64,000 bases of DNA, taken from positions 62,001 to 126,000 of the forward strand of contig NZ_SNAQ03000004.1 of assembly GCF_004375085.3 (NCBI RefSeq). Direction: 5' to 3'. Made by a program: the position numbers and the translations under genes. The notes beneath the pieces are model-generated. The model saw only the letters and a program-made list of their open reading frames with translations. It had not been told where the DNA came from and did no database searches. Below, piece by piece: positions 5,396 through 47,105 of the stretch. Source of the DNA: Lewinella sp. W8 (GTDB lineage Bacteria; Bacteroidota; Bacteroidia; Chitinophagales; Saprospiraceae). Position 1 is the stretch's first letter. Every line of letters starts with the position of its first letter.

Positions 5396-5460
5396 GGCAC
5401 CCGCGCTACGTCGCAATTGAATCAATTCGACGATCCCGACGAGTTACGAATCTCGGGACC
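5396..5460 (+). repeat. GATCCCGACGAG hairpin element, copy 1
   Basis: A 65-bp element running from GGCACCCGCGCTACGTCGC through CAATTGAATCAATTCGAC to a hairpin, GATCCCGACGAG paired with CTCGGGACC. Almost the same 64 bp is found inverted at 16476-16539 inside the nqr operon. Shorter or variant copies lie at 24357-24477, 32071-32130 and 47000-47105. It starts about 20 bp after the stop of the small membrane protein. Confidence 0.8.
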
Positions 5461-6648: not shown

Positions 6649-7950
6649 CTATTTTTGGCGGAAGAAAATGGAAATGGGCACTCCGGTGAAGTCAAAATGC
6701 TCCCGGATCTGGTTCTCCAGGTAGTTTTTGTAGCTCTCCTTGACGTGCTGCGGGTGGTTGCAGTAAAAGGCGAAGGCGGGATAGGCAATCGGCAGCTGGG
6801 TCACGTACTTGATCTTGATCTCGCGCCCCCGGTAGCTTGGCGGACGGTAGCGCTCCATCGACTTCTGCAGCACCTCGTTGAGACGGGAAGTGGGAATGCG
6901 GCGGGTGCGGTTTTCGTACACCCGCAGGGCTTCGTCCACCGTCTTCATGATCCGTTGTTTCTCCGTCACGCTCATGAAGACGACCGGCAGGTCGCTGAAG
7001 GGCGCGAACCGCTTCCGCACCTTTTCCTCGTAGTCGCGGGCCGTATTGGTCTCCTTGTCCTGCACCAGGTCCCACTTGTTGATCGCAATGACGATGCCCT
7101 TGTTGCGCTTCTGGGCGATGCGGAAGATGGCCAGGTCCTGGGATTCCACACCGTCCGTAGCGTCAATCAGCAGTACGCAAACGTCGGCCTTTTCGATGGC
7201 ACGGATGGCCCGCATCACGGAGTAAAATTCCAGGTTCTCGTAGACCTTATTCTTCTTGCGGATGCCCGCGGTATCGATCAGGTTGAATTCCTTACCGAAC
7301 TTGTTGTAGTAGCTATTGATGCTGTCGCGGGTGGTGCCGGCGATGTCGGTCACGATGTTGCGCTCCTCTCCGAGGAGGGCGTTGACGAAGCTCGATTTCC
7401 CGGCGTTTGGCTGGCCGACGATCGCAAACTGAGGAATGGACGATTCCTCCTCCTCGTGGTTTTGCACGTGCTCCACCACGGCGTCCAGCAGGTCTCCGGT
7501 ACCGGAGCCGGTCACGGAGCTGAGGAAGAAGGTTTCCTCAAAACCGAGGGACCAAAATTCGTTGGCCTCCAGCTGCCGCTGGTGGTTATCCACCTTATTG
7601 ACGGCCAGCACGACGGGCTTTTTCGTTTTGCGGAGCATGCGCGCGACCTGCTCGTCGAGGTCGGTCAGGCCGGTAGAGACGTCCACCATAAACAGGATCA
7701 CCGTCGCCTCGTCGATGGCGATCTCCACCTGGTCGCGGATGGCGGCCTCGAAGACGTCGTCGCTGTTGCGGACGAACCCGCCGGTATCCACCACCGCAAA
7801 TTCTTTGCCGTTCCAGTTGGACTGACCGTACTGCCGGTCGCGGGTCACCCCGCTCATATCGTCCACGATACTCTGCTTCTCGCCGATCAGTCGGTTGAAG
7901 AGCGTCGATTTGCCTACGTTGGGCCGGCCTACAATGGCAACAATATCCAT
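6649..7950 (-). CDS. der: Ribosome biogenesis GTPase Der (EngA)
   Basis: A 433-residue double-GTPase needed for 50S subunit maturation. Two tandem G domains are visible: G1 GRPNVGKS and DTGG in the first, NKVD near residue 118, then GQPNAGKS, DTAG and NKWD in the second. A C-terminal KH-like domain ends the protein with PISIFFRQK. Length is as expected for the family. The start codon is followed upstream by an array of degenerate 8-bp repeats (7967-8030) that takes the place where a promoter would be expected. It precedes the SMUG2-type glycosylase gene by 11 bp. Confidence 0.98.
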   Translation of the reverse strand: MDIVAIVGRPNVGKSTLFNRLIGEKQSIVDDMSGVTRDRQYGQSNWNGKEFAVVDTGGFVRNSDDVFEAAIRDQVEIAIDEATVILFMVDVSTGLTDLDEQVARMLRKTKKPVVLAVNKVDNHQRQLEANEFWSLGFEETFFLSSVTGSGTGDLLDAVVEHVQNHEEEESSIPQFAIVGQPNAGKSSFVNALLGEERNIVTDIAGTTRDSINSYYNKFGKEFNLIDTAGIRKKNKVYENLEFYSVMRAIRAIEKADVCVLLIDATDGVESQDLAIFRIAQKRNKGIVIAINKWDLVQDKETNTARDYEEKVRKRFAPFSDLPVVFMSVTEKQRIMKTVDEALRVYENRTRRIPTSRLNEVLQKSMERYRPPSYRGREIKIKYVTQLPIAYPAFAFYCNHPQHVKESYKNYLENQIREHFDFTGVPISIFFRQK

Positions 7951-7966: not shown

Positions 7967-8030
7967 GTTCTTTAGACTATTGGTTCGTTAGACGGTTGGT
8001 CTGTTAGACTGTTGGTCCGTTAGTCTTTTA
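7967..8030 (+). repeat. Degenerate octamer array 1 (8 units)
   Basis: Eight head-to-tail 8-bp units with the form G-T/A-Y-N-N-T-T-R, for example GTTCGTTA, GACGGTTG, GTCTGTTA, GACTGTTG, GTCCGTTA and GTCTTTTA. It begins 16 bp upstream of the der start codon. Arrays with the same unit lie at 11757-11875 and 30371-30489. The remaining 200 bp up to 8235 show no other clear feature. Confidence 0.85.
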
Positions 8031-9879: not shown

Positions 9880-9977
9880 GTCGGCGGACGAACCTGCTCG
9901 TGCCTCGCGTTTCGGCCGACGACCATTCAGTCCTTCATTCATTCAATCCTTCATTCATTCAATCCCTCAATCCTTCC
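9880..9977 (+). repeat. Repeat fragment plus CATTCAATCCTT-type tandem words
   Basis: CTCGTGCCTCGCGTTTCGG followed by CCGACGACC (9899-9926) recurs with one change at 25015-25042. It runs directly into a period-4 series of CATT, CAAT and CCTT words (9927-9977). Similar word runs lie at 16545-16625, 26277-26347 and, as the complement, at 24481-24520 and 25408-25440. Confidence 0.6.
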
Positions 9978-10433
9978 CTACCGAGCCGCTAACCACTGCC
10001 GGAGCAGCATGCGACAACTGCGTTCGCTGGCACCTGCGTCAATCGCCAACTGCATGTCCGCGATGGCCTGTTCCATGACTTCGTTGGCCCAGTTGCCCGA
10101 GGCGCAGGGGCAGTCTTCTACCTCATGGACCGCCGAGTTATAGAAGCGGATGGAAGTACAGACCGGACTGATCAATTGCTGGCGGCATTTGGCCACGATA
10201 CGCCGGGCCGGGCGGGCCGAAAAGGAGCCCACCGGGTAGTGGAGGTGATGGGCGGGAAGCTGTTCGTGGCTCAGGCTGGCGCTGCCGTCGCCGTAGATGC
10301 GCAGCTGCCAGCCCGTAGTGTTGGCCACCTCCGCGTAGTCGAGTTCCGCCAGCACGATGCGGGGACTCGTGTTGCCACAAGCCGAAAGCAAAATCCAGCC
10401 AGCTACGAGAAAGCGGAAGGGTGAAGACGACAT
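9978..10433 (-). CDS. Hypothetical lipoprotein
   Basis: 151 residues with a lipoprotein signal peptide (lipobox LLSAC, lipidated C19). The mature part is not recognised. It contains a strand-rich first half (IVLAELDYAEVANTTGWQLRIYGDGSASLSH) and cysteines at about 83, 92, 109 and 111 (VCTS, DCPCASG) that could form disulfides or bind metal. The gene is monocistronic and divergent from the M16 peptidase gene, with only 27 bp between the start codons, so their promoters must overlap or lie inside the coding sequences. Envelope localisation is inferred from the lipobox. Confidence 0.7.
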   Translation of the reverse strand: MSSSPFRFLVAGWILLSACGNTSPRIVLAELDYAEVANTTGWQLRIYGDGSASLSHEQLPAHHLHYPVGSFSARPARRIVAKCRQQLISPVCTSIRFYNSAVHEVEDCPCASGNWANEVMEQAIADMQLAIDAGASERSCRMLLRQWLAAR

Positions 10434-10460: not shown

Positions 10461-11756
10461 ATGCCATCCGGGTTTCCTTTGGCGGGCATCCCCTATAAAA
10501 TCCTAATTTTCTTGATTTCCTACGATACTTACATCCTTGACAATGGCCTTCGCGTGGTGCTGCACCACGACCCGAAACGCACGGCCGTAGCCGTCAACGT
10601 GCTCTATAAGGTAGGGAGTCGCAACGACCCGCCAGAGCGTACGGGATTCGCCCATTTGTTTGAGCACCTCATGTTTGCCGGTTCGGCCAACGTGCCAAAT
10701 TTTGACGATGCCCTCCAGCTGGCGGGCGGCGAAAACAACGCCGTCACGGGTTCCGATCACACCCTTTACTACGACATCCTACCGGCGGCCAATATGGAAA
10801 CCGCCCTCTGGCTGGAAAGCGACCGGATGCGGCAGCTGAACTTCAGCGAGCAGTCCCTGGCCGTGCAGAAAAAAGTGGTCGTTGAGGAGTTTAAGGAGAC
10901 CTGTCTGGAAGAACCCTACGGTGACCTCTACCACCACCTGAACGATCTCGTTTACACCGTCCACCCCTACCGCTGGCCAGTCATCGGGGAGCGGTTTGAG
11001 CACATCGAACAGGCGACCCTGGAAGACGTAAAGGACTTCTACTACCGCTACTACCGCCCGGACAACGCCGTGCTGAGCATCGCCGGCGGCTTCGACCCCA
11101 AAAGTATTCGGGAACGGATCGATTTCTGGTTCGGAGATATTCCCCGCACGGACGGCAGCCACGACCGTCCGCCCCTCCCGGAAGAACCGCCGCAGCTGAG
11201 CCCACGCAAGAAAACCGTGGTGGCGGACGTCCCCAGTCCGGTCATTTACCTCAATTACCGCACCCCGGGAAGGCTCCACCCCGACTTCCCGGCCATCGAT
11301 ATCCTGAGCTTCCTGCTGGGCAGCGGGCGCTCCTCCCTACTCTACCGCCGCCTGATGCGCGACAGCGAACTCTTCGCCGAAGTAAGCTGCGGGCTGACGG
11401 ACAACCTCGACTCCGGGGGGATCCTGATCGACGCCCGACCGGCCGAAGACGTCGACTACCGGGAGGCGCGCCAGGCACTTTTCGACGTCGTAGACGAAAT
11501 GGTGGAACGGGGTATATCCAAAAAAGAACTGACCAAGGTGATTAACCGTCTGGAGCACCACAACCACTTCAAGACCATCAGCGTCAACAACCGCGCGGGG
11601 GAGCTGGCCTTTTACGCCGCCTTGGGTCAGCCGGAACTGATCAACACCGAGCTGGACCGCTACCTTTCCCTCACCGTGGAAGACATTAACCGGGTGATCA
11701 AAAAATACCTGCGGCCGGAAGGACGGAGTGAGGTGGAGTATTTGTGTGAAGACTGA
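10461..11756 (+). CDS. M16 family zinc metallopeptidase
   Basis: A 431-residue insulinase-type peptidase of the single-chain mitochondrial-processing-peptidase-like kind. The zinc motif H-x-x-E-H is intact in FAHLFEHLMFAGS, the distal glutamate lies in the helix VVVEEFKE, and R/Y substrate residues are expected near the C-terminal M16C domain. There is no clear signal peptide: residues 5-18 are hydrophobic but short. The TTG at 10512 would start the protein at MISYDTYILDNGLRVVLH, which matches the usual family N-terminus better than the ATG at 10461. The stop codon is directly followed by an octamer array. Confidence 0.9.
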   Translation: MPSGFPLAGIPYKILIFLISYDTYILDNGLRVVLHHDPKRTAVAVNVLYKVGSRNDPPERTGFAHLFEHLMFAGSANVPNFDDALQLAGGENNAVTGSDHTLYYDILPAANMETALWLESDRMRQLNFSEQSLAVQKKVVVEEFKETCLEEPYGDLYHHLNDLVYTVHPYRWPVIGERFEHIEQATLEDVKDFYYRYYRPDNAVLSIAGGFDPKSIRERIDFWFGDIPRTDGSHDRPPLPEEPPQLSPRKKTVVADVPSPVIYLNYRTPGRLHPDFPAIDILSFLLGSGRSSLLYRRLMRDSELFAEVSCGLTDNLDSGGILIDARPAEDVDYREARQALFDVVDEMVERGISKKELTKVINRLEHHNHFKTISVNNRAGELAFYAALGQPELINTELDRYLSLTVEDINRVIKKYLRPEGRSEVEYLCED

Positions 11757-11875
11757 GTTGGTCTGTTAGTTCGTTAGTTCGTTAGTTCGTTAGTCTTTTG
11801 GTCTGTTGGTCTGTTAGTTCGTTGGTCTTTTGGTCTGTTGGTCTGTTAGTTCGTTGGTCTTTTGGTCAGTTAGTG
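11757..11875 (+). repeat. Degenerate octamer array 2 (about 15 units)
   Basis: Starts at the base after the TGA stop of the M16 peptidase. Units are GT-C/T-T/C-G/T-TT-A/G: GTCTGTTA, GTTCGTTA (three in a row), GTCTTTTG, GTCTGTTG and so on. A four-unit (32-bp) super-repeat is seen twice near the end. The same unit occurs in arrays at 7967 and 30371. Confidence 0.9.
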
Positions 11876-11905
11876 TGGGAGGGGGTGCACTTGTATGAAG
11901 GCCAG

Positions 11906-12697
11906 TTAGGCTCCGGTATATTTCATCATGGCTTTTCCTACGGGCAGGATTTCCAGGCCCGGCATCTTCACCAATCTGCCGAGGAGGTCGTCCAGATAAT
12001 CCGCCGTCATGGGTCCCCAGCCTTCTTCGTCCAGGCCGTGAACGTTCAGGATGAGCCATCCGCCCGGGGCGTTGAGGAACTCCTGCACGGTAGTTTCCAC
12101 CCAGGCATCAATGTTATCCGGTCCGTTGGCCGCACACACCAGGTAGTGGTCGGTTTCTTTGCCGGGCATCGGTTCCGTGTAGAGCTGTTGGTAGCGCATC
12201 CGGGAACGAACGGCCAAAACCCGTTCCAGCAAAAATTCTTCCAGGGCCGGCGTGGAGGCATTGAAGGGGAAGTTGAAGACCGCTTCCTCGTTGCGGTAAC
12301 CCCGAAGGTGCTCTTCGAAGTAGTCCAGGCACTTCATGATCAGCTTCTGGGCCTTGCGGGGTTTCTGCTTGGCGAGGTTCAGGTGTTTCCAGCTGTGCGG
12401 CATGATCTCGTGCCCCCGCTTTTTGAGGTCGTTCCAGTCGTCAAAGCTCCCCATCAGTTCCGGCCGAATCCACTCATCTACTTGTTTGAAGGAGGGCAGA
12501 TGCCCCGAAGCGATAACGTTCAGGCAGGCCCGTAAGCCGTGCCCCTCGTGAATGTCCGCCGCCCGGTGGAATGATTTGCGGAAGCCATCATCAAAACTCA
12601 GACTGAGTAAATGCGTGGGGGCTGCGGGGGCAAACCCACTGGCGCCCAGCGCCAGGGTGCCGAGGCCGGCCGTTTTCAGGAATACTCTTCGATCCAT
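11906..12697 (-). CDS. Tat-exported polysaccharide deacetylase-like protein
   Basis: 263 residues. The N-terminus MDRRVFLKTAGLGTLALGASG is a twin-arginine signal (RRVFLK) for export of a folded protein. The NodB-like fold is supported by motif 1 LSFDDGF (D36, D37) and motif 2 MPHSWKHL (H-S-x-x-H) which bind the metal in carbohydrate esterase family 4. Motif 3 and the later histidine (ILNVHGLDEEGWG) are recognisable. It probably removes acetyl groups from an extracellular polysaccharide, but some family members with a divergent core are not catalytic. It is monocistronic and lies between an octamer array and the nqr operon terminator. Confidence 0.83.
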   Translation of the reverse strand: MDRRVFLKTAGLGTLALGASGFAPAAPTHLLSLSFDDGFRKSFHRAADIHEGHGLRACLNVIASGHLPSFKQVDEWIRPELMGSFDDWNDLKKRGHEIMPHSWKHLNLAKQKPRKAQKLIMKCLDYFEEHLRGYRNEEAVFNFPFNASTPALEEFLLERVLAVRSRMRYQQLYTEPMPGKETDHYLVCAANGPDNIDAWVETTVQEFLNAPGGWLILNVHGLDEEGWGPMTADYLDDLLGRLVKMPGLEILPVGKAMMKYTGA

Positions 12698-16539: not shown

Positions 16540-16727
16540 AGTGATTATGGATTGAAGGAGCGAATTATTGAAGGATCGAATTATTCAGTCATTCCATCCT
16601 TCAGACATTCAATCATTCATTCCTTGTTAACCTGGCACCTGCGCGCCGTCGCATGCTCTTGATTGCCTTGATCCCGATGAACTTTAATGGGTTCGTAGAA
16701 TCGTGGCCTTATAAAACAAGAAAGCGC

Positions 16728-24347: not shown

Positions 24348-24356
24348 CGGGGCAAC

Positions 24357-24477
24357 GGCCCCGAGTTTCGTAACCCTCGTCGGGATCGCTAATTATTAAA
24401 AGAATGCAGCGGCCCCGAGTTCCGTTCAGCTCGTCGGGATCGTTGATTTTTAAGAAAATGCAACGACGTGCGGGTGC
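24357..24477 (-). repeat. GATCCCGACGAG hairpin element, tandem copy pair 3
   Basis: Two head-to-tail units: GGCCCCGAG...CTCGTCGGGATC followed by an AT-rich segment and GAATGCAGC (24358-24410), then the same with GTTGATTTTTAAG and AAATGCAACG and the GTGCGGGTGC end (24411-24477). They start 10 bp after the lptB stop and may act as its terminator, although no strong T-run follows. GA/TT word runs fill 24478-24530. Confidence 0.75.
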
Positions 24478-24535
24478 AATGATTAAGGACGGAAGGAGAG
24501 AATGATTGAAGGATTGAATATTTCGGTCAGGAAAA

Positions 24536-24560
24536 GGCTTGCTCCCGCAAGCCGGTCGTC
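24536..24560 (-). repeat. GGCTTGC/GCAAGCC hairpin repeat
   Basis: GGCTTGC-TCCC-GCAAGCC then GGTCGTC. The complement of the sequence at 4127-4150 apart from one loop base. Confidence 0.6.
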
Positions 24561-24590
24561 GGGTAGAATCCAGGATAAAGGGCTGTGACT

Positions 24591-24730
24591 GAGGCTGAGG
24601 AAAAATAATCGGATGGTGGAAAATTGGGGTAAGAAAAGGACCCTTTGTTTCCAGAAAAATACGTTCATCGGATGCCTCCCGAGCGCAGCGAGGGGTCATC
24701 CGATGCATCGATTCAGTGGAGAGGATTAGG
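24591..24730 (+). repeat. 140-bp duplicated block, left copy
   Basis: From GAGGCTGAGGAAAAATAATC through GGACCCTTTGTTTCCAGAAA to GTGGAGAGGATTAGG. It includes the hairpin CATCGGATG...CATCCGATG around CCTCCCGAGCGCAGCGAGGG. It matches 25469-25608 at about nine positions in ten, same orientation. Confidence 0.85.
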
Positions 24731-24744
24731 GAGGCTGAGGATTA

Positions 24745-24883
24745 GGTCGTCCGCCCAGGCGTGACGCAGGAGCTGACTGGTCGGCCGACCGGAATTGAGG
24801 TTTTCGTAAAGGACTCTGATGATTCCGTAGCGCCGAATCTATTCGGCAAAAAGATTGAGTCAACGGCTAAAGCCATCGCTACT
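24745..24883 (-). repeat. Composite two-part hairpin repeat, copy B
   Basis: The complement of this segment has the same order as 3931-4064: AGTAGCGATGGCTTTAGCC, hairpin GCCGAAT-AG-ATTCGGC, GGCGCTACGGAA, a spacer of about 32 bp, then GGTCGGCCGACC...CGCCTGGGCGGACGACC. The second part matches 25607-25652 with one mismatch but in inverted orientation. Confidence 0.8.
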
Positions 24884-25090
24884 GAAATGAACTGGTAATT
24901 AACCGTTCATGTACAGGGATTCGGAGCAGTTCGCGGTGTTCGACGGCTACGAAGAGCTCCAGTACTCTGACTCTTCCCTTCAATTTCCTAACCCGGGCGG
25001 CAGACTCCCCCCCACTCGTGCCTCGCATTTCGGCCGACGACCGTTTCAACCTCCGGTTCCTCTCGTTCTTCAAGTTAGGTTGGAAGCTCC

Positions 25091-25372
25091 TCACCAAACT
25101 GAAATCACGTCGGCGATTAATCCAAATACCAGTAATCCGAGGATGCGTAGATACCCGGCCCTAATACCTTCCTTTCCCAAGAAGACACGCAGGCCAACCC
25201 AAAACCCGAGAATGCCCACTGAAACGAGCAGGTAGAGTGCCCAGTCCGGGTACATGAAAACGTAGATCATGTCAGTGTAGTTATAGAAGTACCATAACTG
25301 AACATATTGCCACACCCAAAGGAGGGACAACAGCATCTGAAGGCCGCCATGTAGTTTAGGACTCAGGAGCAA
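25091..25372 (-). CDS. Hypothetical small membrane protein in repeat island
   Basis: A 93-residue open frame with three predicted membrane helices (LLSLLWVWQYVQLWYF, ALYLLVSVGILGFWVGLRVF and GYLRILGLLVFGLIADVISVW). The aromatic-rich, helical character is that of a real membrane protein, and a second ATG at 25336 would start at the first helix. It is the only credible gene in the 2-kb repeat island and its base composition is AT-richer than the window average. It may be an intact small gene or the remains of a longer one. No family recognised. Confidence 0.5.
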   Translation of the reverse strand: MLLSPKLHGGLQMLLSLLWVWQYVQLWYFYNYTDMIYVFMYPDWALYLLVSVGILGFWVGLRVFLGKEGIRAGYLRILGLLVFGLIADVISVW

Positions 25373-25468
25373 TGATTTCCTTTTTGGGCGCGGGGCGCAG
25401 GTGCAATGATTAAGGAGAGAATGATTGAAGGATTGAATATTTCAGTCATGCTGTCCAATTATTTTGGC

Positions 25469-25608
25469 GAGGCTGAGGAAAGATAATCGGGCGGTAGAAA
25501 GTTGGGGTAAGAAAAGGACCCTTTGTTTCCAGAAAAATGCGTTCATCGGATGCCTCCCGAGCGCAGCGAGGGGGCATCCGATGCATCGATTCAGTGGAGA
25601 AGATTAGG
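25469..25608 (+). repeat. 140-bp duplicated block, right copy
   Basis: Second copy of 24591-24730, with the hairpin now fully paired at its base (CATCGGATGCC with GGCATCCGATG). It leads straight into the palindrome GGTCGGCCGACC at 25607. Confidence 0.85.
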
Positions 25609-25652
25609 TCGGCCGACCAGTCAGCTCCTGCGTCACGCCTGGGCGGGCGACC
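25607..25652 (+). repeat. Composite repeat, second part only (copy C)
   Basis: GGTCGGCCGACC, then AGTCAGCTCCTGCGTCACG and CCTGGGCGGGCGACC. It equals the second part of copies A and B; the first part with the GCTTTAGCC hairpin is missing here. Confidence 0.8.
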
Positions 25653-25707
25653 GGAAATCTGTCCAGCGATTTCGTCGTAATCGCGCTCGTTCGTAAGGGT
25701 GATCCGT

Positions 25708-26194
25708 AGCGTCAAGGCATGTGTGGGTTAGCGCAAAGTTGTAACCCTTACAATGGCGTAGAGTTACGGCCGTTCTATGCTTTGTAATCTGTGCCCCACG
25801 AATATCTTTTTTCACCTTTAGGTTTGTGGCCAGTAGTCTGACAGACTACAGACTGATCTTGACTCCCAATTAAGGAAATATCAAATAATTGGAGGCAGGT
25901 GGTGTTTCCTTTCCCCGAAAGGAAACCGAATCAGCCTGGGATAACTAAAGGACCTTCCGCGAAAGAATGTGGCCAATCGATCTTGTACAATCCTTCCTAC
26001 TTTGATGGAGTGGTCGCCTTTCGGGGAAAGGCGACACCAGGCATTTACCCCTAGGGTGGATGATTTCGACTTTCAGGTGATTATGATTTTCAAGAAGCAC
26101 AGGACTTAGAGAATTTGGACTTAATTATTACAGAATAAGCCATAGTTTCTGGAAGGGGTATAACCCTATGCCATCCCACACATGCCTTGACGCT
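25708..26194. mobile_element. Candidate non-autonomous element with 20-bp perfect inverted repeats
   Basis: AGCGTCAAGGCATGTGTGGG at 25708-25727 is the exact complement of 26175-26194, and weaker inverted similarity continues inward. Nested inside, two 23-nt perfect hairpins lie as inverted copies: GTTTCCTTTC-CCC-GAAAGGAAAC (25904-25926) and GTCGCCTTTC-GGG-GAAAGGCGAC (26013-26035). No reading frame of note is inside. It resembles a miniature inverted-repeat element; no target duplication is obvious and no transposase is in the window. Confidence 0.55.
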
Positions 26195-26205
26195 GCGGTA
26201 AAACC

Positions 26206-26260
26206 CGCTCCTCGTCGCTGCTGGCCGCAGCTCGCTTTGCTCGACAGCGCCGAGGAGCGC
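26206..26260. repeat. GC-rich hairpin
   Basis: CGCTCCTCG pairs with CGAGGAGCG, extended by CGCTG/CAGCG around a 26-nt centre. It is followed by CATTCAATCCCTCC words up to 26347 and then the end of the convergent carrier gene. Confidence 0.5.
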
Positions 26261-26349
26261 TACTTCCTGCTTCGACCATTCAATCCCTCCATCATTCAAT
26301 CCCTCCGCCATTCATTCCTTCAATCCTTCACTAATTCCATCCTTCCCCC

Positions 26350-27741
26350 TCAACTATACCCCACCGCCACGGCCAGCATCAGCCCCAGCCAGGCCCAGAC
26401 CAGGATGATGCCCGTCAGGGGCAGCGCGAAGCGCAGCCAGCGGTCGAAGGGTACCCGGCAGAGCGACAGCATCGCAATGAGGCCACCCAGGGAGGGGTTG
26501 AACAGGTTGGTTACCCCGTCTCCGACCTGAAAGGCGAGGATGGAAATCTGCCGGGAGAGCCCGAGGGCTTCCCCGAGGGGGATCATCACCGGAAGGGTGG
26601 CCAGGGCCTGGCCGCTGCCGGAGGGAATGAGCAGGTTCAGGCCGCTTTGTCCGATGGACATCCCGATGGCCGACGCGTAGCTCGGTAGTCCGCGGAGGGC
26701 TTCGGCCATGCCGAAGCTGATGGTATCCTGAATTTGCCCCTGCTCCATGAGCACCTTCACCGTGGCGGCCATACCGATGATGAAGGTAGCCGGCGCCATC
26801 TGGGCCACGGCACCCATCCCGGCGGCGGTCACCTCGCGGCCCGTCAGGCCGCTGGTCAGCGCACAGACGACCATCACGATGAGGAACACCGCCGAAATAT
26901 CGTTGATGAACCAGTGGTAGGTAAACACTCCGTAGAGCACCCAGCCCAAACCCGCCAGAAACACCCCCAACAGCCACCAGTTACGGCCAGACAGCCGATA
27001 TTCCTCCAGCGGTTTGGAGAGCTTCATGCCGGACTGATCCAGGCCCCGCCCGATGCCGGATGCCGGGTCGGCCTGAAGTCGTCGGTAATAACGTAGATTA
27101 TACAGGGCCGTGATGGTCAGGGCCCCGAAGCAGAGGATGGTCCGCAGCCACCAGCCGCTGAACAGCGGCAATTCGGCGATGTCGTGCCCGATGCCCACGG
27201 TGTAGGGATTGATGGGCGAAAGGCCGAAGGCTACGGTCATGCCCCCCACGCTCACCCCGGCGGCCAGTACCAGGTCTCCGCCCAGCGCCAGCACCACGAC
27301 GGCGGCAATGGGGATGGTGGCGATATTGTTCTCGTAGCCCACCATGATCCCCAGAATTCCGTACACGAAGGTCAGCAGCACCAGCAGCCATTCGGCGTGC
27401 CGGTCGCCCAGTTTATGCACCAGGCGGCCCACCGCATTTTCAATGGTGTGGGTTTTTTCCAGGATGGAAAACATCAGCGCACTGGCCAGACAAATGAAGA
27501 TCACCGGCGTGGCCACCTTGTACCCCTCCGGAAAGGCCCGGAATAAATTAAAAAAGCTGATGGGGGTGGAGGGGACCTCGGAAAAACTTCCCGGCACCAC
27601 GCGCATCCGGCCGTTCACCTCTACCCTCTCGTAGTGGCCGGCGGGTAGGAGATAGGTCATGATCGCCACGGCGACCACGATCAGGAAAAGCATGATGAGG
27701 GGCGAAGGAATACGGGCGTACCAGGCTTTCTTTTCGGACAC
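26350..27741 (-). CDS. YfcC-family (DcuC superfamily) membrane carrier
   Basis: A 463-residue carrier with about 12 membrane helices. The family signatures are the N-terminal helix followed by LLPAGHYERV, the hairpin motif AFGLSPINPYTVGIGHDIAELP, and the second hairpin GQSGLNLLIPSGSGQALATLPVMIPL. YfcC proteins are predicted to move C4-dicarboxylates or basic amino acids; the substrate is not established. It starts 42 bp after the GCS2-CBS gene on the same strand, so the carrier may supply or export a substrate or product of that enzyme. Confidence 0.85.
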   Translation of the reverse strand: MSEKKAWYARIPSPLIMLFLIVVAVAIMTYLLPAGHYERVEVNGRMRVVPGSFSEVPSTPISFFNLFRAFPEGYKVATPVIFICLASALMFSILEKTHTIENAVGRLVHKLGDRHAEWLLVLLTFVYGILGIMVGYENNIATIPIAAVVVLALGGDLVLAAGVSVGGMTVAFGLSPINPYTVGIGHDIAELPLFSGWWLRTILCFGALTITALYNLRYYRRLQADPASGIGRGLDQSGMKLSKPLEEYRLSGRNWWLLGVFLAGLGWVLYGVFTYHWFINDISAVFLIVMVVCALTSGLTGREVTAAGMGAVAQMAPATFIIGMAATVKVLMEQGQIQDTISFGMAEALRGLPSYASAIGMSIGQSGLNLLIPSGSGQALATLPVMIPLGEALGLSRQISILAFQVGDGVTNLFNPSLGGLIAMLSLCRVPFDRWLRFALPLTGIILVWAWLGLMLAVAVGYS

Positions 27742-30370: not shown

Positions 30371-30489
30371 TGAACTAACCGACTAACGAACCAACAAACT
30401 AAAAGACCAACAAACTAAAAGACCAACAGACTAAAAGACTAACAGACTAACAGACTAAAAGACTAACGAACTAACAGACCAACAAACTA
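30371..30489 (-). repeat. Degenerate octamer array 3 (about 14 units)
   Basis: On the minus strand, starting in the TAG stop codon of hisIE, units GTTTGTTG, GTCTGTTA, GTTCGTTA, GTCTTTTA, GTCTGTTA continue in exact 8-bp phase for about 115 bp. The orientation relative to the gene and the place at the stop codon are the same as for array 2. Confidence 0.9.
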
Positions 30490-31095
30490 CTTATGCCTTC
30501 CCCGCAGCACTTCCCGCACGTCTTCCAGGGTATAGCCCTTTGCCGCCAGCAATACGATATAGTGGTACATTAAATCCGCAGCTTCCCCCAGGAACAGGTC
30601 CCGGTTATCGTCCTTGGCTTCGATGACCAGTTCCACCGCTTCTTCCCCCACCTTCTGGGCGACCTTATTGATGCCCCGGGCGAGTAGTTTACTGGTGTAG
30701 CTCTGCTCACTGGGATTATCCCGACGGTGCTGGATGGTCCGCTCCAGGTGGTCAAGGAAATCCCCCCGGTTATCTTCGCCCCAGCAGGTATCGTCTCCGG
30801 TATGGCAGGTAGGTCCGGCGGGGTTCGCCAGTATCAGCAGGCTATCCTGATCGCAATCGGGATGAACGCTGACGAGCTGGAGCACATTACCACTGCTTTC
30901 CCCTTTGGTCCACAGTCGCTGCTTACTCCGGCTGAAGAAAGTCACCAATCCTTTTTGCAGGGTCACGTCCAACGCTTCGCGGTTCATGTAGCCCTGCATC
31001 AGTACGGTACGCGTTTTAGCGTCCTGCACGATGGCGGGCAGTAAGCCGTTAGCGGCTTGGTCAAAGGCGAGTTGTTCGGGAGATAATTCGTTCAT
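30487..31095 (-). CDS. hisIE: Bifunctional phosphoribosyl-AMP cyclohydrolase/phosphoribosyl-ATP pyrophosphatase
   Basis: A 202-residue fusion for steps 2 and 3 of histidine synthesis. The HisI domain (1 to about 112) has the metal-site motifs VHPDCDQDSLL and PTCHTGDDTCWG; the HisE domain (about 118-202) has KVGEEAVELVIEAKDDNRDLFLGEAADLMYH-type helices. The fusion is usual in Bacteroidota. It lies 67 bp after hisF. The other his genes are not in the window, so this is either the end of a split pathway or a separate pair. Confidence 0.96.
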   Translation of the reverse strand: MNELSPEQLAFDQAANGLLPAIVQDAKTRTVLMQGYMNREALDVTLQKGLVTFFSRSKQRLWTKGESSGNVLQLVSVHPDCDQDSLLILANPAGPTCHTGDDTCWGEDNRGDFLDHLERTIQHRRDNPSEQSYTSKLLARGINKVAQKVGEEAVELVIEAKDDNRDLFLGEAADLMYHYIVLLAAKGYTLEDVREVLRGRHK

Positions 31096-40578: not shown

Positions 40579-43500
40579 TTACCGCTTCATGAACCGCACG
40601 GAACGGATGCCCTGCTCCGTCTGGAACTGGGCAAAGTACATGCCGGCGGGGAGGGTGCTGATGTCCAGGCGAAGCTGCGCGGAAGTCGTACCTCCGGGCA
40701 GTGGCTGTACGTCGTAGGAACGTCCGTTAAGGTCGCGAACCGACACCGTACCCCGGGGCAGTGGCAGGTCGCTTTCGAGCGTGAGCATGACCTCTCCTCC
40801 GGAAACGGGGTTGGGGTAAGCCGTCAGGGAGACGGAACTTCTCACGTCATCCTGGAGGTGATCCTGGAAGACGCCGCCCCCGATTTCCATCATTTCCGCA
40901 CGGGTGACGGTTACGAAGTTGTCGCTGAGCGCAAAGCAACCGTCGGTAAGGACGGTGTCGTCGGCGTCATCGCCAACCATGGCCGTCACGTTTCCGGTGT
41001 AGGCCAGTCCCCACACCCGGCAAACGCCGGGGCCGGCGGGACCGAAGTCTACCGTTCCGTCGGCGGAAGTGCCCAGGATCACGTTTTCCTCATCGGTGAC
41101 CACGTAGAGATACTCATCGTCCATGCTGGCCGTAGAGATGAAGGACAGCACGGCCGTAGGTTCTTCCCCACTCCGGTCAATTTCCACGGTTACCTCCGTC
41201 ATTCCATCCTCGGTGGTGACCATACCGCCGTCGGGGTCGGATTTGGTGACCGTGATGAAGTTGCTGGAGATAGCGTAACACTCCGTACTCAGGAAGGCCG
41301 TTTCAATGTTCTGCCCGAAGGAGATGGTCGGTTGTCCGGTGATGTTGGTGCCGTAAATCCGGTAAGTTCCCGCGGGGAAGGCCGTGAAGGGAATGATTCC
41401 GCTGGGCAGGTTCGCCACCAGTACGCCGCCGTTTTCGTCGGTAACGACGTAACGGTAATTGGCCGCCGAAACACTGGCTTCCACCAGCACAATCGGATTA
41501 TTGCCGGCGGGAATACAGAAGCTAAGCGTATCACTGTCGGCCCCTACCACACTCAGGCTACCCGCCGTAATGCTTCCTCCCTGACGGACGGTCAGGAAGT
41601 CGGAGGTCAATTCATAACAGTTATCGGCCAGGGCCACCACCGCCGCATCGTCACCCACCTGAGCGATGATGTTTCCGGTGTAGGAGAGTCCCCAGACGCG
41701 ATAGTCGCCTTCCGGAAGGCTGCCGAGGTCCACCTCATTGGGGTCCGTAGCGATCAGCTGGATGATGTTGTTTTCGTCGGTAACCAGAATGGCGTAACCC
41801 GCCACGCTGGTGCTGGTGGTCGCCACCGCGATGGTGCCGTCGCCGTCAACGGAGCAGGACACGTTGGTGGGTGGTACGTCCACGAAGCTGATTTCTCCCG
41901 CTTCGGGGTTATCGTTAAAGATGGTCACGAAATTGGAAACGCTCACGCAGCCCGTGGCCAACTGGCTGAACAGGATGGAGGTTCCCGGACCGGCCAGGAG
42001 GTCTCCGGTGTAGCTGATAGCATAGACTCTCAGTTCCATCAGGGGAAGCGGACCAAAGTCAAAGGAAGCGCTGTCCATGACGTTCAGAATCACGTCGGTC
42101 GCCGTGGCGATCACGTAGACGTAGTTCGTATCCTGTACGACGCTGTTGGAGAAGAAGGAGACGAAGCCGTCTTCGAGGTTGTCGGGGCAGAGGTAAACCT
42201 CAGTCGCCCCGTTCTCCGCGGTGATTTCGCCACCATCCACCTGCGTCACGTTGATGGTGATGGACGTATCGCTGAGTTCAAAGCAGCTGGTCGCCAAATC
42301 TTCGTTGAAGATGTCCTGCCCGGGGATGATGCTCAGATCTCCCGTGTAGGCCAGACCGTAAACTTCGTAGGTGCCGGAAAGGGCGTTGTTGAAGTCAAAG
42401 GAGTTCCCCTCAATCGGCTGCAACGCAAAGCCCTCCTGGGTAATGAGGTAAACGTAGTTCTGGGAAGGCGAGGTGGTGGTAAACACCAGTTCATCGGCTT
42501 CGTCGTCTCCTGAACAAACGTCAATAACGTTGGTGCCATCGTCGAGGCTCACGCTACCACCCACGGGAATTTCCCGAATGACGGTCACGAAGTTCTCACT
42601 GAGGGAGAAACAGCCCGTGGCCAGCTGGGCCGTGGAGGCCGTGTCGCCGACCAGGGCCAGCGGATCACCGGCGAAGGCCAGTCCCCACACCCGGCAGACG
42701 CCCACGCCCGCACCCTCAAAATCGAAGGAGTCGTCGGCGGGGAAATCGAGAATGACGTTATTCTCGTCCGTGATGACGTAGGTGTAGCTGGGGCCGGTAG
42801 CGCCCTCACTGCGGAAGCGCAATACGTCCGCCACTCCGTCACCCGGACAGGTAGCCGTTTGCGTGGCGCCATTGTTCAGGCTGACCGTGCCGCCCATCAC
42901 TTCTTCCCGAATCACGGTCACGAAGTTATCGCTGAGGTCGAAGCAGCCGGTGGCCAGGTCAACCGCCGTGGCATCGTCTCCGGGGCCGGCCGTCAGGGTG
43001 CCCTGGTAGGACAAGCCCCAGATGCGGCAACGGCCTTCGACGGCTTCGTCGAAATTGAACGTGTTCTCTTCGGATACGGTCAGGATGATGTTCTCGGAGG
43101 TCGTCACTACGTAAATGAAGCGGGCCCCCACCGCATCGGTAGAAACTACTTCCACCAGATCCGGCACGCCGTCCATGGGGCAAACGGTAATTTCGTTCGT
43201 CCCGTCCGCCAGGCTTACTTCACCGCCGTCGGGAATTTCTTTGACGACCGTAACGAAGTTCTCGGACAGGGCCGCACACTCCGTGGCCAGTTGGTCGACG
43301 CCGGCCACGTCACCCGGGTTGGCCGAGATCAGTCCGTTGTAGCCCAGTCCCCATACGCGGCAGACGCCTTCGGGGAAGGTTTCGAAGTTGATCCGGTCGG
43401 TGAAGGCCACCTGGATCAGGACATTATTCGTATCCGTCACGATGTAGTTGAAGCGCTCCAGGCTGGTGCCCGTAGAGTCAAAAAACAGCGGATCGGGAAT

Positions 43501-46500
43501 CAGGTCGCCGGGGCAGATCAGGGCCTCCAGGCCACCGTCTTCCAGACTGATGGGACCCGTGGTCGCCTCAATGCGGTCTACGGTAACGAAATTGTCGGAC
43601 AGGGCCGCACACTCCGTGGCCAGCTGTACCTCGTTGATGTTGTCGCCCTCGTTGAGGAGGACATCTCCCGAGTAGCTGAGGCCGTAGACGCGGCAGAGGC
43701 CAACGGGGGCGTCTTCAAAGTCGATGGTGCCGCTGGCGGGCAGGCTGATCACCACGCCGTTTTCGTCCGTGATGATGAAGGCAAACTCATTCGTTGCCGT
43801 AGCGCCGGTGGACACGAACGTCAGGATGTCCGCGATCCCGTCACCGGGACACAGGGTCGTAGCGGTCGCGCCGCTTTCCAGACGCACCGTACCTCCGGTA
43901 GGTTCTTCCCGGCGGACGGTCACGAAATTATCACTGAGGGCAAAGCAACCGGTGGCCAGCGGGGTGCCGGCCGCGTTGTCGCCAACTTCCGCCAGCAGCT
44001 CGCCTTCGTAGGCCAGGCCCCATACGCGGCACACGCCGACTCCGGCACCTTCAAAGTCAATGGTGCCGTCCGTGGAAACGTCCAGAATGTTGTTCTCCGC
44101 GTCGGTGATTACGAAGATGAAGTTGGTCGCGTCCGCTCCGGTGCTGACGAAGTCATACACGTCGGCTACGCCATCACCCGGACAGGTGAACAGTTCGGTT
44201 TCTCCGTCGACGGTAGCCACCGTTCCTCCGGCGGGTACCGCCCGGACTACGGTGACGAAGTTATCGCTGAGGGCAAAGCAATCGTCGGCCAGATCAACTT
44301 CGCCGGCATTGTCGCCCGGAGCAAAGATGAGGCTGCCCTGGTAGGTCAGAGCCCAGATGCGGGAAACGCCAACGCCCAGGGACTCCAGGTCGAAGCTGGG
44401 CGTATTGGAGAAGTCTTGAATGATGTTGTTCTCATCGGTCAGGAGGTAGACCAACTCGCCACCACTGTTGCCGGTAGCCACCACCTCAATTACGTCGGCA
44501 TTACCGTCGCCGGGGCAGGTGCGTACTTCAGTTTCTCCGTCCACCGTGGCGATGGTACCACCGCGGGGGATTTCCCGCACCACGGTTACGAAGTTGGAGC
44601 TGAGGGAGAAGCAGTCGTCGGCCAGCGCCAGGGAGGTGATCAGGCCACCGGGGCTGAAGATCAGGTTGCCCTGGTAGGTGAGGTTCCAGATGCGGCAGGT
44701 GCCTTCGGGAGCGCCGTCCAGATCGATCATGGGGCTCTCCGAAGAGTCGAGAATCAGGTTATTGTCGTCGGTGATCACGAAAATCTGATCACCTCCGGAA
44801 GCGCCGTCCACGACGACTTCCACGATGTCGGCGTTGCCGTCGCCGGGACAGATGAGGACTTCGTCTTCACCGTCTACCGTAGCCACCGTGCCGCCCACGG
44901 GGGTGATGCGCTCAACGGCAATGAAGTTGTCACTGAGGGCAAAACAATCGTCGGCCAGGTCAACTTCTCCGGCATTATCGCCCTCGCTTACGGTGAGGTT
45001 ACCCTGGTAGGTCAGGGCCCAGATGCGGCAGTTGCCAACGGGAGAATCGTCGAGGTCAAAGGTTGCCGATTCGGAAATCGTCAGCACCACGTTGTTTTCG
45101 TCGGTGACCAGGTAGACCACCTCGCCGCCGACGGAGCCGGTCAGTACGGCCTCTACGATGTCGGCATTGTTGTCGCCCGGGCAGACCCGCACGGAGGTTT
45201 CCCCGTCAGCCGTAGCCACCGTGCCCCCCACGGGAACGATGCGCACCACGGTAACGAAGTTGTCACTCAGGGCGAAGCAGTTGTCGGACAGGTCCGTCGT
45301 GGCGGCGTTGTCGCCGATTTCGAAGGTGAGGTTACCCTGGTAAGAAAGGGTCCAGATGCGGCAGGTGCCCTCGGGGGCGCCGTCGAGGTCAAAGCTGGGT
45401 TCTTCGGAGAAGCCGAGAATATTGTTGTTGTCGTCGGTCAGCAGGTAGACCAGGTCGCCGCCCGTCGCGCCGGTGGCCACTACGTCCACGATGTCGGCGT
45501 TGCCGTCACCGGGGCAGGTCAGGACTTCCGTTTCTCCGTCCACGGTGGCGATGGTGCCCCCCTCAGGGATTTCCCGGCGGACCTCCACGAAGTTGGAGGA
45601 GAGCGCAAAACAGCTGGTGGCCAGTACCGCACCGGAGACGGGTTCTCCGATGGTGGCGGTAAGTTCTCCTTCGTAGGAGACGGCCCAGACGCGGCAGATG
45701 CCGACCGGAGCCTCGTTGAAGTCCTCGCTGTTGCCGGTGGGCAGACCGATGATCACGTTGGCCTCATCGGTGATGATGTAGCCGCTGTTCGATCCGACGT
45801 TGCCGGTGGTCATGAAGCTGACGACGTCGGGAATATCATCGTTGGGGCACACCCGCACGATGGATTCTCCTTCGGTAGTCGACACCGTACCGCCCTTGAT
45901 CTCCAGGCGGGTTACGGTGATAAAGTTGGGGGAAAGGCCGCCGCCGCAGGTGCCGAGACCGACGAGTGCGGAAACGTTATCACCGATGGTGACGGGTAGG
46001 TCGCCCTCGTAGCCAAAGGCGTAGATGCGGCAAACGCCCGCGCCGGCACCGTCGAAGTCAATCGCGCCGGTGTCGTTGAGGTCCAGGATTACCCCGGCTT
46101 CGTCGGTAACGACGAAGGCGGTATTCGTGCTCGTCGTCGTGGAGGTCACGTTGACGATGTCCGGCTCCCCGTCGCCGGGGCACACCGTAATTTCTTCTTC
46201 ACCGGTGTCGGTGGCGATGGTCGCCTCCCCGGTTTGTCCGTTATTGACGCTGACGAAATTGGTCGTCAGGCCAAAACAGGGAGTGGATAAGGTGGCGGTA
46301 GAGAAAACGTCCCCTACGTCGGCCGTGATCCTTCCGTAGGTAGAAAAGGCGTAGACCCGGAGTTGGCCGGGAGGGAGCAGATCAAAGTTGATCCGGTTGC
46401 TGAAGTCAATGGAGAGGATGATGTCGTTGGCGTCCACGACGACGTAGGCGAACGCCTGGCGGAAGGGGACAACCTGAAACCGGATGCGGTCCATGACCTC

Positions 46501-46671
46501 ATCGTCGGTACAAGTGGCGATTTCTGTTTCACCAGTAAACGCAACGCTGATCTCGGAATCATCCTGGCAGGAACGGGTGCCGGTGGAGGAGGGAGTTTGA
46601 GCAAGAGCAGTTTGGGTCGTCAGAGCAAAAAAAACAGAAAGCAATAGGCCGGAGTAAAAGTGCTTCAGCAT
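40579..46671 (-). CDS. Giant secreted protein with 17 tandem repeats and T9SS sorting domain
   Basis: 2030 residues. A signal peptide (cleavage after TALAQ, about residue 25) is followed by 17 tandem repeats of about 111 residues, each of the form GGTVATVDGE-T-CPGDGNADIV...TDENNVIL...FDLDGAPEGTCRIWGLSYQGNL...GDNA...L-CFALSDNFVTV. Most repeats hold three cysteines (CPGDG, G-CR-W and the CFALS position). The last 85 residues are a type A T9SS sorting domain (AYPNPVSGGEVMLTL, ISTLPAGMYFAQ, end RFMKR). The DNA of repeats 4-8 is the most similar. The protein is probably exported through the T9SS and attached to the surface, as an adhesin or matrix protein; the function is inferred. It is monocistronic, divergent from the CHU_C protein. 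Confidence 0.9.
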   Translation of the reverse strand: MLKHFYSGLLLSVFFALTTQTALAQTPSSTGTRSCQDDSEISVAFTGETEIATCTDDEVMDRIRFQVVPFRQAFAYVVVDANDIILSIDFSNRINFDLLPPGQLRVYAFSTYGRITADVGDVFSTATLSTPCFGLTTNFVSVNNGQTGEATIATDTGEEEITVCPGDGEPDIVNVTSTTTSTNTAFVVTDEAGVILDLNDTGAIDFDGAGAGVCRIYAFGYEGDLPVTIGDNVSALVGLGTCGGGLSPNFITVTRLEIKGGTVSTTEGESIVRVCPNDDIPDVVSFMTTGNVGSNSGYIITDEANVIIGLPTGNSEDFNEAPVGICRVWAVSYEGELTATIGEPVSGAVLATSCFALSSNFVEVRREIPEGGTIATVDGETEVLTCPGDGNADIVDVVATGATGGDLVYLLTDDNNNILGFSEEPSFDLDGAPEGTCRIWTLSYQGNLTFEIGDNAATTDLSDNCFALSDNFVTVVRIVPVGGTVATADGETSVRVCPGDNNADIVEAVLTGSVGGEVVYLVTDENNVVLTISESATFDLDDSPVGNCRIWALTYQGNLTVSEGDNAGEVDLADDCFALSDNFIAVERITPVGGTVATVDGEDEVLICPGDGNADIVEVVVDGASGGDQIFVITDDNNLILDSSESPMIDLDGAPEGTCRIWNLTYQGNLIFSPGGLITSLALADDCFSLSSNFVTVVREIPRGGTIATVDGETEVRTCPGDGNADVIEVVATGNSGGELVYLLTDENNIIQDFSNTPSFDLESLGVGVSRIWALTYQGSLIFAPGDNAGEVDLADDCFALSDNFVTVVRAVPAGGTVATVDGETELFTCPGDGVADVYDFVSTGADATNFIFVITDAENNILDVSTDGTIDFEGAGVGVCRVWGLAYEGELLAEVGDNAAGTPLATGCFALSDNFVTVRREEPTGGTVRLESGATATTLCPGDGIADILTFVSTGATATNEFAFIITDENGVVISLPASGTIDFEDAPVGLCRVYGLSYSGDVLLNEGDNINEVQLATECAALSDNFVTVDRIEATTGPISLEDGGLEALICPGDLIPDPLFFDSTGTSLERFNYIVTDTNNVLIQVAFTDRINFETFPEGVCRVWGLGYNGLISANPGDVAGVDQLATECAALSENFVTVVKEIPDGGEVSLADGTNEITVCPMDGVPDLVEVVSTDAVGARFIYVVTTSENIILTVSEENTFNFDEAVEGRCRIWGLSYQGTLTAGPGDDATAVDLATGCFDLSDNFVTVIREEVMGGTVSLNNGATQTATCPGDGVADVLRFRSEGATGPSYTYVITDENNVILDFPADDSFDFEGAGVGVCRVWGLAFAGDPLALVGDTASTAQLATGCFSLSENFVTVIREIPVGGSVSLDDGTNVIDVCSGDDEADELVFTTTSPSQNYVYLITQEGFALQPIEGNSFDFNNALSGTYEVYGLAYTGDLSIIPGQDIFNEDLATSCFELSDTSITINVTQVDGGEITAENGATEVYLCPDNLEDGFVSFFSNSVVQDTNYVYVIATATDVILNVMDSASFDFGPLPLMELRVYAISYTGDLLAGPGTSILFSQLATGCVSVSNFVTIFNDNPEAGEISFVDVPPTNVSCSVDGDGTIAVATTSTSVAGYAILVTDENNIIQLIATDPNEVDLGSLPEGDYRVWGLSYTGNIIAQVGDDAAVVALADNCYELTSDFLTVRQGGSITAGSLSVVGADSDTLSFCIPAGNNPIVLVEASVSAANYRYVVTDENGGVLVANLPSGIIPFTAFPAGTYRIYGTNITGQPTISFGQNIETAFLSTECYAISSNFITVTKSDPDGGMVTTEDGMTEVTVEIDRSGEEPTAVLSFISTASMDDEYLYVVTDEENVILGTSADGTVDFGPAGPGVCRVWGLAYTGNVTAMVGDDADDTVLTDGCFALSDNFVTVTRAEMMEIGGGVFQDHLQDDVRSSVSLTAYPNPVSGGEVMLTLESDLPLPRGTVSVRDLNGRSYDVQPLPGGTTSAQLRLDISTLPAGMYFAQFQTEQGIRSVRFMKR

Positions 46672-46985: not shown

Positions 46986-47105
46986 GGCACCCGCACGCCG
47001 CTGCATTTTTTAAAAATCAGCGATCCCGACGAGGATTACGGAACTCGGGACCGCTGCATTTTTTAAAAATCAGCGATCCCGACGAGGGTTACGGAACTCG
47101 GGACC
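46986..47105 (+). repeat. GATCCCGACGAG hairpin element, tandem pair 5
   Basis: GGCACCCGCACGCC at 46986, then two 53-bp units (47000-47052, 47053-47105), each GCTGCATTTTTTAAAAATC then GATCCCGACGAGG-TTACGGAACTCGGGACC. The units differ at one base only, which indicates very recent duplication or correction. They lie in the 538-bp space between two divergent secreted-protein genes, downstream of AT-rich sequence (46700-46810) that probably holds the promoter of the giant gene. Confidence 0.85.

What the first reader, a model, noticed from the sequence alone, without database searches (positions are those of the whole stretch)
11757..11875. Degenerate 8-bp tandem array starting exactly at a stop codon
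Directly after the TGA of the M16 peptidase about 15 units in strict 8-bp phase follow the pattern GT-C/T-T/C-G/T-TT-A/G. Each variable position takes mostly two states, and units are mixed, not identical, with a 32-bp super-repeat. This is unlike a simple microsatellite and unlike CRISPR. Possible roles: a protein-binding array, a 3'-UTR regulatory element, or a slippage-grown element with constrained positions. The same unit is found at two unlinked loci.
Basis: seen in the sequence. Interest (0 to 1): 0.72.

Follow-up and report, generated by a model that had tools for sequence, protein, structure and literature searches.

The report
Polarised 8-bp repeat arrays at genes
The stretch is one of dozens of scattered 8-letter DNA repeat arrays in this bacterium that sit just outside genes and mostly point away from them; they are probably grown by DNA copying slips, and why they point one way is not known.

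Summary
The array is real: 15 phased octamers at 11757-11876, 13 fitting KTTRGTYY, directly after the M16 stop; chance expectation 0. It is one of a dispersed family: 236 three-unit matches in the 6.18 Mb genome, 0 for the reversed pattern, nearly confined to one genus. Inside arrays TTRG hardly varies (2 off-grammar letters in 4 x 369 positions) while the other four positions do (91 in 4 x 369). Arrays avoid genes and are polarised: the GTT end is the one nearer its gene boundary in 92 of 104 arrays from three species, mostly within 25 nt of a stop or start. Other short repeats in the genus lean the same way (74 of 99; 27 of 35); a small outgroup sample does not (13 of 25). The same geometry is published for GGGNATC heptamers in Xanthomonas and Nostoc, discussed there as quadruplexes (PMC4692102); family A has no G-run of three. 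No family A array lies at the orthologous M16 (0 of 19) or hisIE-like (0 of 18) loci of congeners. Best reading: a slippage-grown octamer satellite held at gene edges, without gene-specific function. Start-side orientation fits G-poor leaders; stop-side polarity stays unexplained.

The parts
11757..11876 (+). The array of the finding: 15 octamers KTTRGTYY, GTT-sense, between convergent genes
11781..11871 (+). 32-bp (four-unit) super-repeat inside the array, 2.8 copies, 96% matches
10461..11756 (+). M16 peptidase gene whose TGA stop (11754-11756) the array follows at 0 nt
11906..12697 (-). Convergent gene (polysaccharide deacetylase domain); its stop is 29 nt from the array's far end
30372..30483 (-). 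Second array, 14 units, starting 3 nt after a stop codon in the sense of that gene
30487..31095 (-). Gene with PRA-CH and PRA-PH domains (hisIE-like) that precedes the second array; stop TAG
7971..8026 (+). Third, looser array, 7 units; its GTT end faces a start codon 20 nt away, so it reads AAC-sense in that gene's leader
6649..7950 (-). EngA-like GTPase gene downstream of the third array
9924..9976 (-). Related kind, other family (GGATTGAA-type octamer), 1-8 nt beyond the stop of the minus-strand ORF 9978-10433
26277..26345 (-). GGATTGAA-type octamer array just after the stop of the minus-strand gene 26350-27741
16551..16619 (.). Two facing GGATTGAA-type arrays between minus-strand genes

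Best explanation
The array belongs to a dispersed, genus-restricted short tandem repeat (an octamer satellite of the 'long simple sequence repeat' kind) that grows and turns over by replication slippage in non-coding DNA and has no gene-specific function at the M16 gene. Shown: 8-bp phase with 16/24/32-bp higher-order repeats, a near-invariant TTRG core with freer remaining positions, near-absence from called genes, absence at two sets of orthologous loci, and polarity away from genes. Inferred: slippage as the growth process; that the core is kept because strand re-annealing needs it (or because something reads it); that start-side orientation is kept because leaders in this genus are G-poor. 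Not explained by composition in this genome: the polarity after stops. My guess there is that GU-rich nascent RNA, free of ribosomes once the stop is passed, favours R-loops and slippage in that orientation, or that the A/C-rich orientation after a stop is selected against.
For: Higher-order repeats of 16, 24 and 32 bp; units two or four apart are more alike (6.58, 6.55 of 8 positions) than units of random arrays (6.13) in G000. G007 has long pure TTTAGTCT arrays, two of them at contig ends. Species differ in the preferred unit but share the pattern. TRF arrays of period 7 and 8: 94 between genes, 0 inside called genes in 1.14 Mb of G000; 0 of 62 family A arrays inside genes in G000, 1 of 25 in G007, 1 of 28 in G002. 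No family A array at the orthologous loci of 19 (M16) and 18 (hisIE-like) congeners. Leaders G-poor in all seven congeners sampled, skew -0.28 to -0.41.
Against: Slippage was not observed; no same-species genomes were compared. Neighbouring units in G000 are no more alike (6.06) than random units (6.13). My first sign of mid-array homogenisation vanished when terminal units were dropped (off-grammar 13 of 72, 25 of 94, 15 of 72). The persistence of the same core across species with other unit preferences could mean recognition. The stop-side polarity needs an extra cause. Two of 9 G007 anchor genes with an orthologue in fetched DNA are also anchored in G000, against 3 of 49 other genes (small).
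Confidence: 0.45

Rival explanations
1. A multivalent binding array: a protein reads the TTRG core every 8 nt, as RNA in UTRs or as DNA, and acts on mRNA ends, stability or transcription.
For: Core near-invariant, rest free; a heptamer family has the same design, AGG plus free letters; strict position at gene edges.
Against: Sense differs at starts and stops; orthologous loci have no array; RRM_1, the one candidate family tested, is in array-free congeners too; no binder is known.
Confidence: 0.2
2. Arms of intergenic hairpins: two facing arrays form a long stem that ends transcripts or insulates neighbouring genes; single arrays are remains.
For: All 16 folded two-arm regions have z below -3. 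In G002 24 of 28 arrays run into a shared inner motif GCTRCCG, in several cases mirrored on the other side.
Against: Only 12 of 51 one-arm regions reach z below -3; array-free convergent regions of G000 do so in 48% of 56. The M16 array has no second arm.
Confidence: 0.15
3. Directional growth: units are added on the strand leaving the gene, as at a telomere, from a seed at the gene edge.
For: GTT strand runs away from genes at stops and starts; the stop codon is an in-phase TAG of a unit in 22 of 62 stop-side arrays.
Against: No gradient from anchored to far end: off-grammar 52 of 164 against 53 of 164, 13 of 72 against 15 of 72 without terminal units.
Confidence: 0.05
4. A mobile inverted-repeat element (MITE- or REP-like) spread the arms, and polarity is the geometry of its two arms.
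For: Inner motif shared among most G002 arrays; two G000 loci share an exact 19-nt spacer.
Against: Ends fit the gene boundaries on both sides at very different spacer lengths; most G000 arrays have one arm; no target duplications were looked for.
Confidence: 0.1

Closest known systems
GGGNATC / GGGGA(C/T)T heptamer repeats of Xanthomonas and Nostoc (Rehm et al. 2015, PMC4692102; abstract, passages and sections 15-16 read)
   Same: Dispersed intergenic short arrays of variable length; sense strand within 50 bp after stops, antisense strand within 50 bp before starts; some facing pairs; no function found.
   Different: Family A is an octamer without a run of three G; arrays have a median of 8.5 units in G000 rather than a preference for four.
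TAACTGA direct repeats of Beggiatoaceae, Cyanobacteria and a few Bacteroidetes (MacGregor 2015, PMC4679880; abstract and sections 3, 12, 24 read)
   Same: Intergenic short arrays close to starts; in one Bacteroidetes species a set after a stop lies in the reverse orientation, as here.
   Different: Heptamer, described as exact; similar heptamers rare there; mainly before starts.
Long simple sequence repeats, 5-11 nt units (Mrazek et al. 2007; known here only as described in PMC4679880 section 3) and cyanobacterial STRR sequences (recalled)
   Same: Unit length, non-coding bias, slippage as proposed origin.
   Different: Fixed core with freer remaining positions, and polarity at gene edges.

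Membership tests
Long simple sequence repeats (5-11 nt units) | Tandem units of 5-11 nt longer than chance | tested here: met
   8-nt unit; shuffles and reversed pattern give 0
Long simple sequence repeats (5-11 nt units) | Mostly outside coding DNA when the unit is not a multiple of three | tested here: met
   period 7 and 8: 94 intergenic, 0 in called genes
Long simple sequence repeats (5-11 nt units) | Copy number varies between strains by slippage | not testable with these tools
   no same-species genomes at hand
GGGNATC-type quadruplex repeats | Runs of three or more G in each unit | tested here: not met
   KTTRGTYY in tandem has at most two G in a row; two-layer quadruplexes were not examined
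GGGNATC-type quadruplex repeats | Sense strand after stops, antisense strand before starts | tested here: met
   92 of 104 arrays
TAACTGA repeats | Unit TAACTGA | tested here: not met
   unit is KTTRGTYY, 8 nt
CRISPR array | Repeats of about 20-40 bp with unique spacers | tested here: not met
   8-bp head-to-tail units without spacers
Rfam RNA family | Match at gathering score | tested here: not met
   0 matches in the window
Hairpin terminator | Stem formed with a second arm | tested here: inconclusive
   16 of 16 two-arm regions fold, 12 of 51 one-arm regions do; the M16 array has one arm

The most novel reading that the evidence does not exclude
A gene-edge-anchored class of bacterial satellites: different 7-8-bp families in one genus share a design (fixed core of 3-4 nt, freer rest) and a polarity (G-richer strand leaving the gene). 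As the same polarity is published for quadruplex heptamers in other phyla, one process that does not need quadruplexes may set it, such as ribosome-free transcription past the stop or a factor that reads the core.
Probability: 0.25. Interest if true: 0.7.

Novelty: new variant of a known kind. Interest (0 to 1): 0.47.

Why it matters
The outward polarity of short intergenic repeats was reported for quadruplex-forming heptamers. Seeing it in a family without G-runs suggests that its cause lies elsewhere, and makes that testable. The contrast between a fixed core and freer positions separates two ideas, slippage that needs a core and a factor that reads a core, which core-mutated arrays could tell apart. 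It also warns against reading a function into a single array: the orthologous loci examined do without it.

Tried and rejected
CRISPR and known RNA families: not met. RRM_1 as partner family: one match in 20 of 21 genus members, with and without arrays, so uninformative. Composition as the whole cause of polarity: not enough for G000 stops, where isolated octamers split 13 to 15 and the 20 nt after stops are near neutral; but in G002 and G007 isolated octamers after stops do lean the same way (15 to 6, 8 to 1), which may be array remains or composition. Directional growth: no gradient. Hairpin as the general function: does not fit one-arm arrays. Shared sites between species: anchor genes with an orthologue in fetched DNA that are anchored there too, 0 of 5 (G002 to G000; other genes 1 of 24), 2 of 9 (G007 to G000; 3 of 49), 0 of 3 (G007 to G002; 2 of 6); too few to decide. 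Family-wide rule: 13 of 25 in four outgroup genera, a small sample of other repeats. Sequences shared by several contig ends beside arrays look like insertion-sequence ends, but this was not tested and the stretches were chosen around arrays.

Limits. Genes were called with my own dicodon script: starts are approximate, stops firm if the gene is right. Dropped before the polarity counts: 7 of 62 G000 arrays and 2 of 25 in G007 (no gene on one side), 1 of 25 in G007 and 1 of 28 in G002 (inside a called gene). Most G000 stretches were chosen around arrays; in the part that was not (the window and 420 kb of contig C11) 7 of 9 arrays are outward. The G002 and G007 stretches were chosen around exact matches; for G002 20 stretches, not all its matches. 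Family A arrays were found with the pattern itself, so arrays with another core would be missed. Among the 99 'non-A' arrays five are A-like by eye (two in G000, three in G007); without them 69 of 94 (p 6e-6). With a G/C skew of 0.7 or more the G000 count is 21 of 31. The period filter was wider than that.

Full report
At 11757-11876 (+) there are 15 octamers in strict phase, 13 fitting KTTRGTYY and the last two off by one letter, beginning at the base after the TGA of an M16 peptidase gene. TRF finds the 32-bp super-repeat. Three tandem units match 21 times in the window and in none of 100 dinucleotide-preserving shuffles. Two more arrays lie in the window: 30372-30483 (-), 3 nt after the stop of a gene with PRA-CH and PRA-PH domains, and 7971-8026 (+), 20 nt from the start of an EngA-like GTPase gene.

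The family is dispersed and nearly genus-restricted. The genome (6.18 Mb, 91 contigs, unnamed) has 236 exact three-unit matches and none of the reversed pattern. One scan of named genomes with the M16 protein found two relatives, the nearer in Neolewinella antarctica at 69% identity, so the window is probably from that genus or close to it (inferred). Of 60 genomes searched, the own one included, 12 have matches, all among the 21 of the same genus. In a draw of 395 genomes of the phylum, with only one other genus member, 4 have a match: the own genome and three with one or two hits, about what the reversed control gives (hits in three genomes). In the fetched 1.14 Mb of G000 I scored 62 arrays of 4 to 19 units, median 8.5; one is made of a single unit type. 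The part not chosen around arrays (window and 420 kb of contig C11) holds 9.

Unit grammar. Among units between the first and last perfect unit of G000 arrays, off-grammar letters fall at positions 1 to 8 as 11, 1, 0, 1, 0, 20, 37, 23 of 369 each; K, R and Y count two letters as right. The scoring treats positions alike, but arrays were found with the pattern. With TRF-defined arrays T3 and G5 are invariant in 506 G000 units. In G002 the off-grammar letters are 0, 0, 0, 0, 0, 0, 4, 1 of 49; in G007, with more freedom at position 2, they are 0, 8, 1, 1, 0, 0, 0, 7 of 93. Preferred units differ: GTTAGTCT and GTTGGTCT in G000, TTTGGTTC in G002, TTTAGTCT in G007. A heptamer family in G000 has a similar design: A, G, G at 0.99, 0.97, 0.98 and a last position with 0.09 bits (18 arrays, 96 units, seeded with AGGATTN).

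Polarity. For the 55 of 62 G000 arrays with a gene on both sides, the GTT end is nearer its boundary than the other end in 45, and lies within 25 nt in 44, against 8 for the other end. G007: 20 of 22, 16 against 1; G002: 27 of 27, 23 against 0. Pooled 92 of 104, p 2e-16. In the part of G000 not chosen around arrays it is 7 of 9. Of G000 arrays whose GTT end faces a stop, 39 of 40 lie within 25 nt. The eight G000 arrays with the other end within 25 nt all face a stop there; four lie between convergent genes, three are also within 14 nt of a start, and one, at C11:341591, is a plain exception. Other short tandem arrays, oriented by G over C, give 74 of 99 in the three species (p 8.5e-7; five of the 99 are A-like, 69 of 94 without them), and 27 of 35 in four further congeners (p 0.0019), but 13 of 25 in four outgroup genera.

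Stops. TAG precedes 28 of 39 G000 stop-side arrays against 321 of 864 stops overall (p 1e-5). In 22 of 62 stop-side arrays of the three genomes the stop is itself the in-phase TAG of a unit (expected one in eight, p 3e-6); distances of 0 and 7 modulo 8 are raised too, 12 each. The M16 array is not of the in-phase kind: its stop is TGA and the first unit starts right after it.

Why polarised? Isolated octamers outside arrays, within 80 nt of a boundary, split 36 GTT-sense to 22 after stops and 18 to 41 before starts over three genomes. After stops this is 13 to 15 in G000, 15 to 6 in G002 and 8 to 1 in G007. The 20 nt before starts are G-poor in all seven congeners sampled (skew -0.28 to -0.41), while the 20 nt after stops are near neutral (0.00 to +0.11). 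So start-side orientation fits leader composition. In G000 stop-side orientation is not explained by composition; in G002 and G007 that control is less clean.

Growth. Signs of slippage are the 16-, 24- and 32-bp higher-order repeats, greater likeness of units two and four apart in G000 and long pure arrays in G007, two at contig ends. Against easy slippage, neighbouring units in G000 are no more alike than random ones (6.06 against 6.13). A first test suggested that array middles are most uniform; with two terminal units dropped at each end this vanished (off-grammar 13 of 72, 25 of 94, 15 of 72 over 29 arrays), so I do not use it. Neither test shows a gradient from the anchored to the far end. 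No family A array lies anywhere in the orthologous M16 loci of 19 congeners or the hisIE-like loci of 18; several of those gene ends carry other short or inverted repeats.

Two-arm forms. Where arrays face each other the region folds strongly: 16 of 16 with z below -3 among intergenic regions of 60-350 nt in three genomes. One-arm regions reach this in 12 of 51, and array-free convergent regions of G000 in 48% of 56. In G002 24 of 28 arrays run into a shared inner motif GCTRCCG within 20 nt. The M16 array has no second arm.

Precedent. Rehm et al. 2015 (PMC4692102; abstract, passages, sections 15 and 16 read) reported the same geometry for G-rich heptamers in Xanthomonas and Nostoc, showed quadruplex formation in vitro and found no regulatory role. 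MacGregor 2015 (PMC4679880; abstract and sections 3, 12, 24 read) reported TAACTGA repeats, mainly just before starts, and in one Bacteroidetes species a set after a stop in the reverse orientation. The paper searches made (listings only) showed no report of this octamer; 'lewinella' with 'tandem repeats' gave no paper in the library. Other libraries and subscription journals were not searched.

Verdict. A new variant of a known kind: an octamer satellite with a fixed core, kept at gene edges with a polarity that does not need G-runs. A function of the array at the M16 gene is not supported; the stop-side polarity is the part worth pursuing.

Noticed in passing
window 16479, 24352-24465, 46998-47105 (partial motif also at 5431): A dispersed intergenic element of about 53 bp (CCCGAGTTYCGNAA ... 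CTCGTCGGGATCG). Six places with the first motif in the fetched G000 DNA, all intergenic, four of them in the window; twelve with the second, eleven intergenic, six in the window.
   Followed up: partly
window 24348-26349: About 2 kb without a called gene that holds two near-copies of a block, each with CCCGAGCGCAGCGAGG (24678 and 25556).
   Followed up: no
window 44194-45570: A 333-bp tandem repeat, 4.1 copies at 67% matches, inside the long minus-strand ORF 40579-46671.
   Followed up: no
G000 C11:150090-150300 and L086:2109-2242: Two array-bearing intergenic regions share an exact 19-nt spacer, which suggests copying between loci.
   Followed up: partly
L072, L080, L081 and L082, L083, L086, L092 (contig ends of G000): Two sequences recur at contig ends a short way beyond family A arrays; they look like insertion-sequence ends, not tested, and the stretches were chosen around arrays.
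   Followed up: no
L130 (G014), L097 and L124 (G005), L126 (G015): Orthologous gene ends in congeners carry other short tandem or inverted repeats instead of family A.
   Followed up: partly
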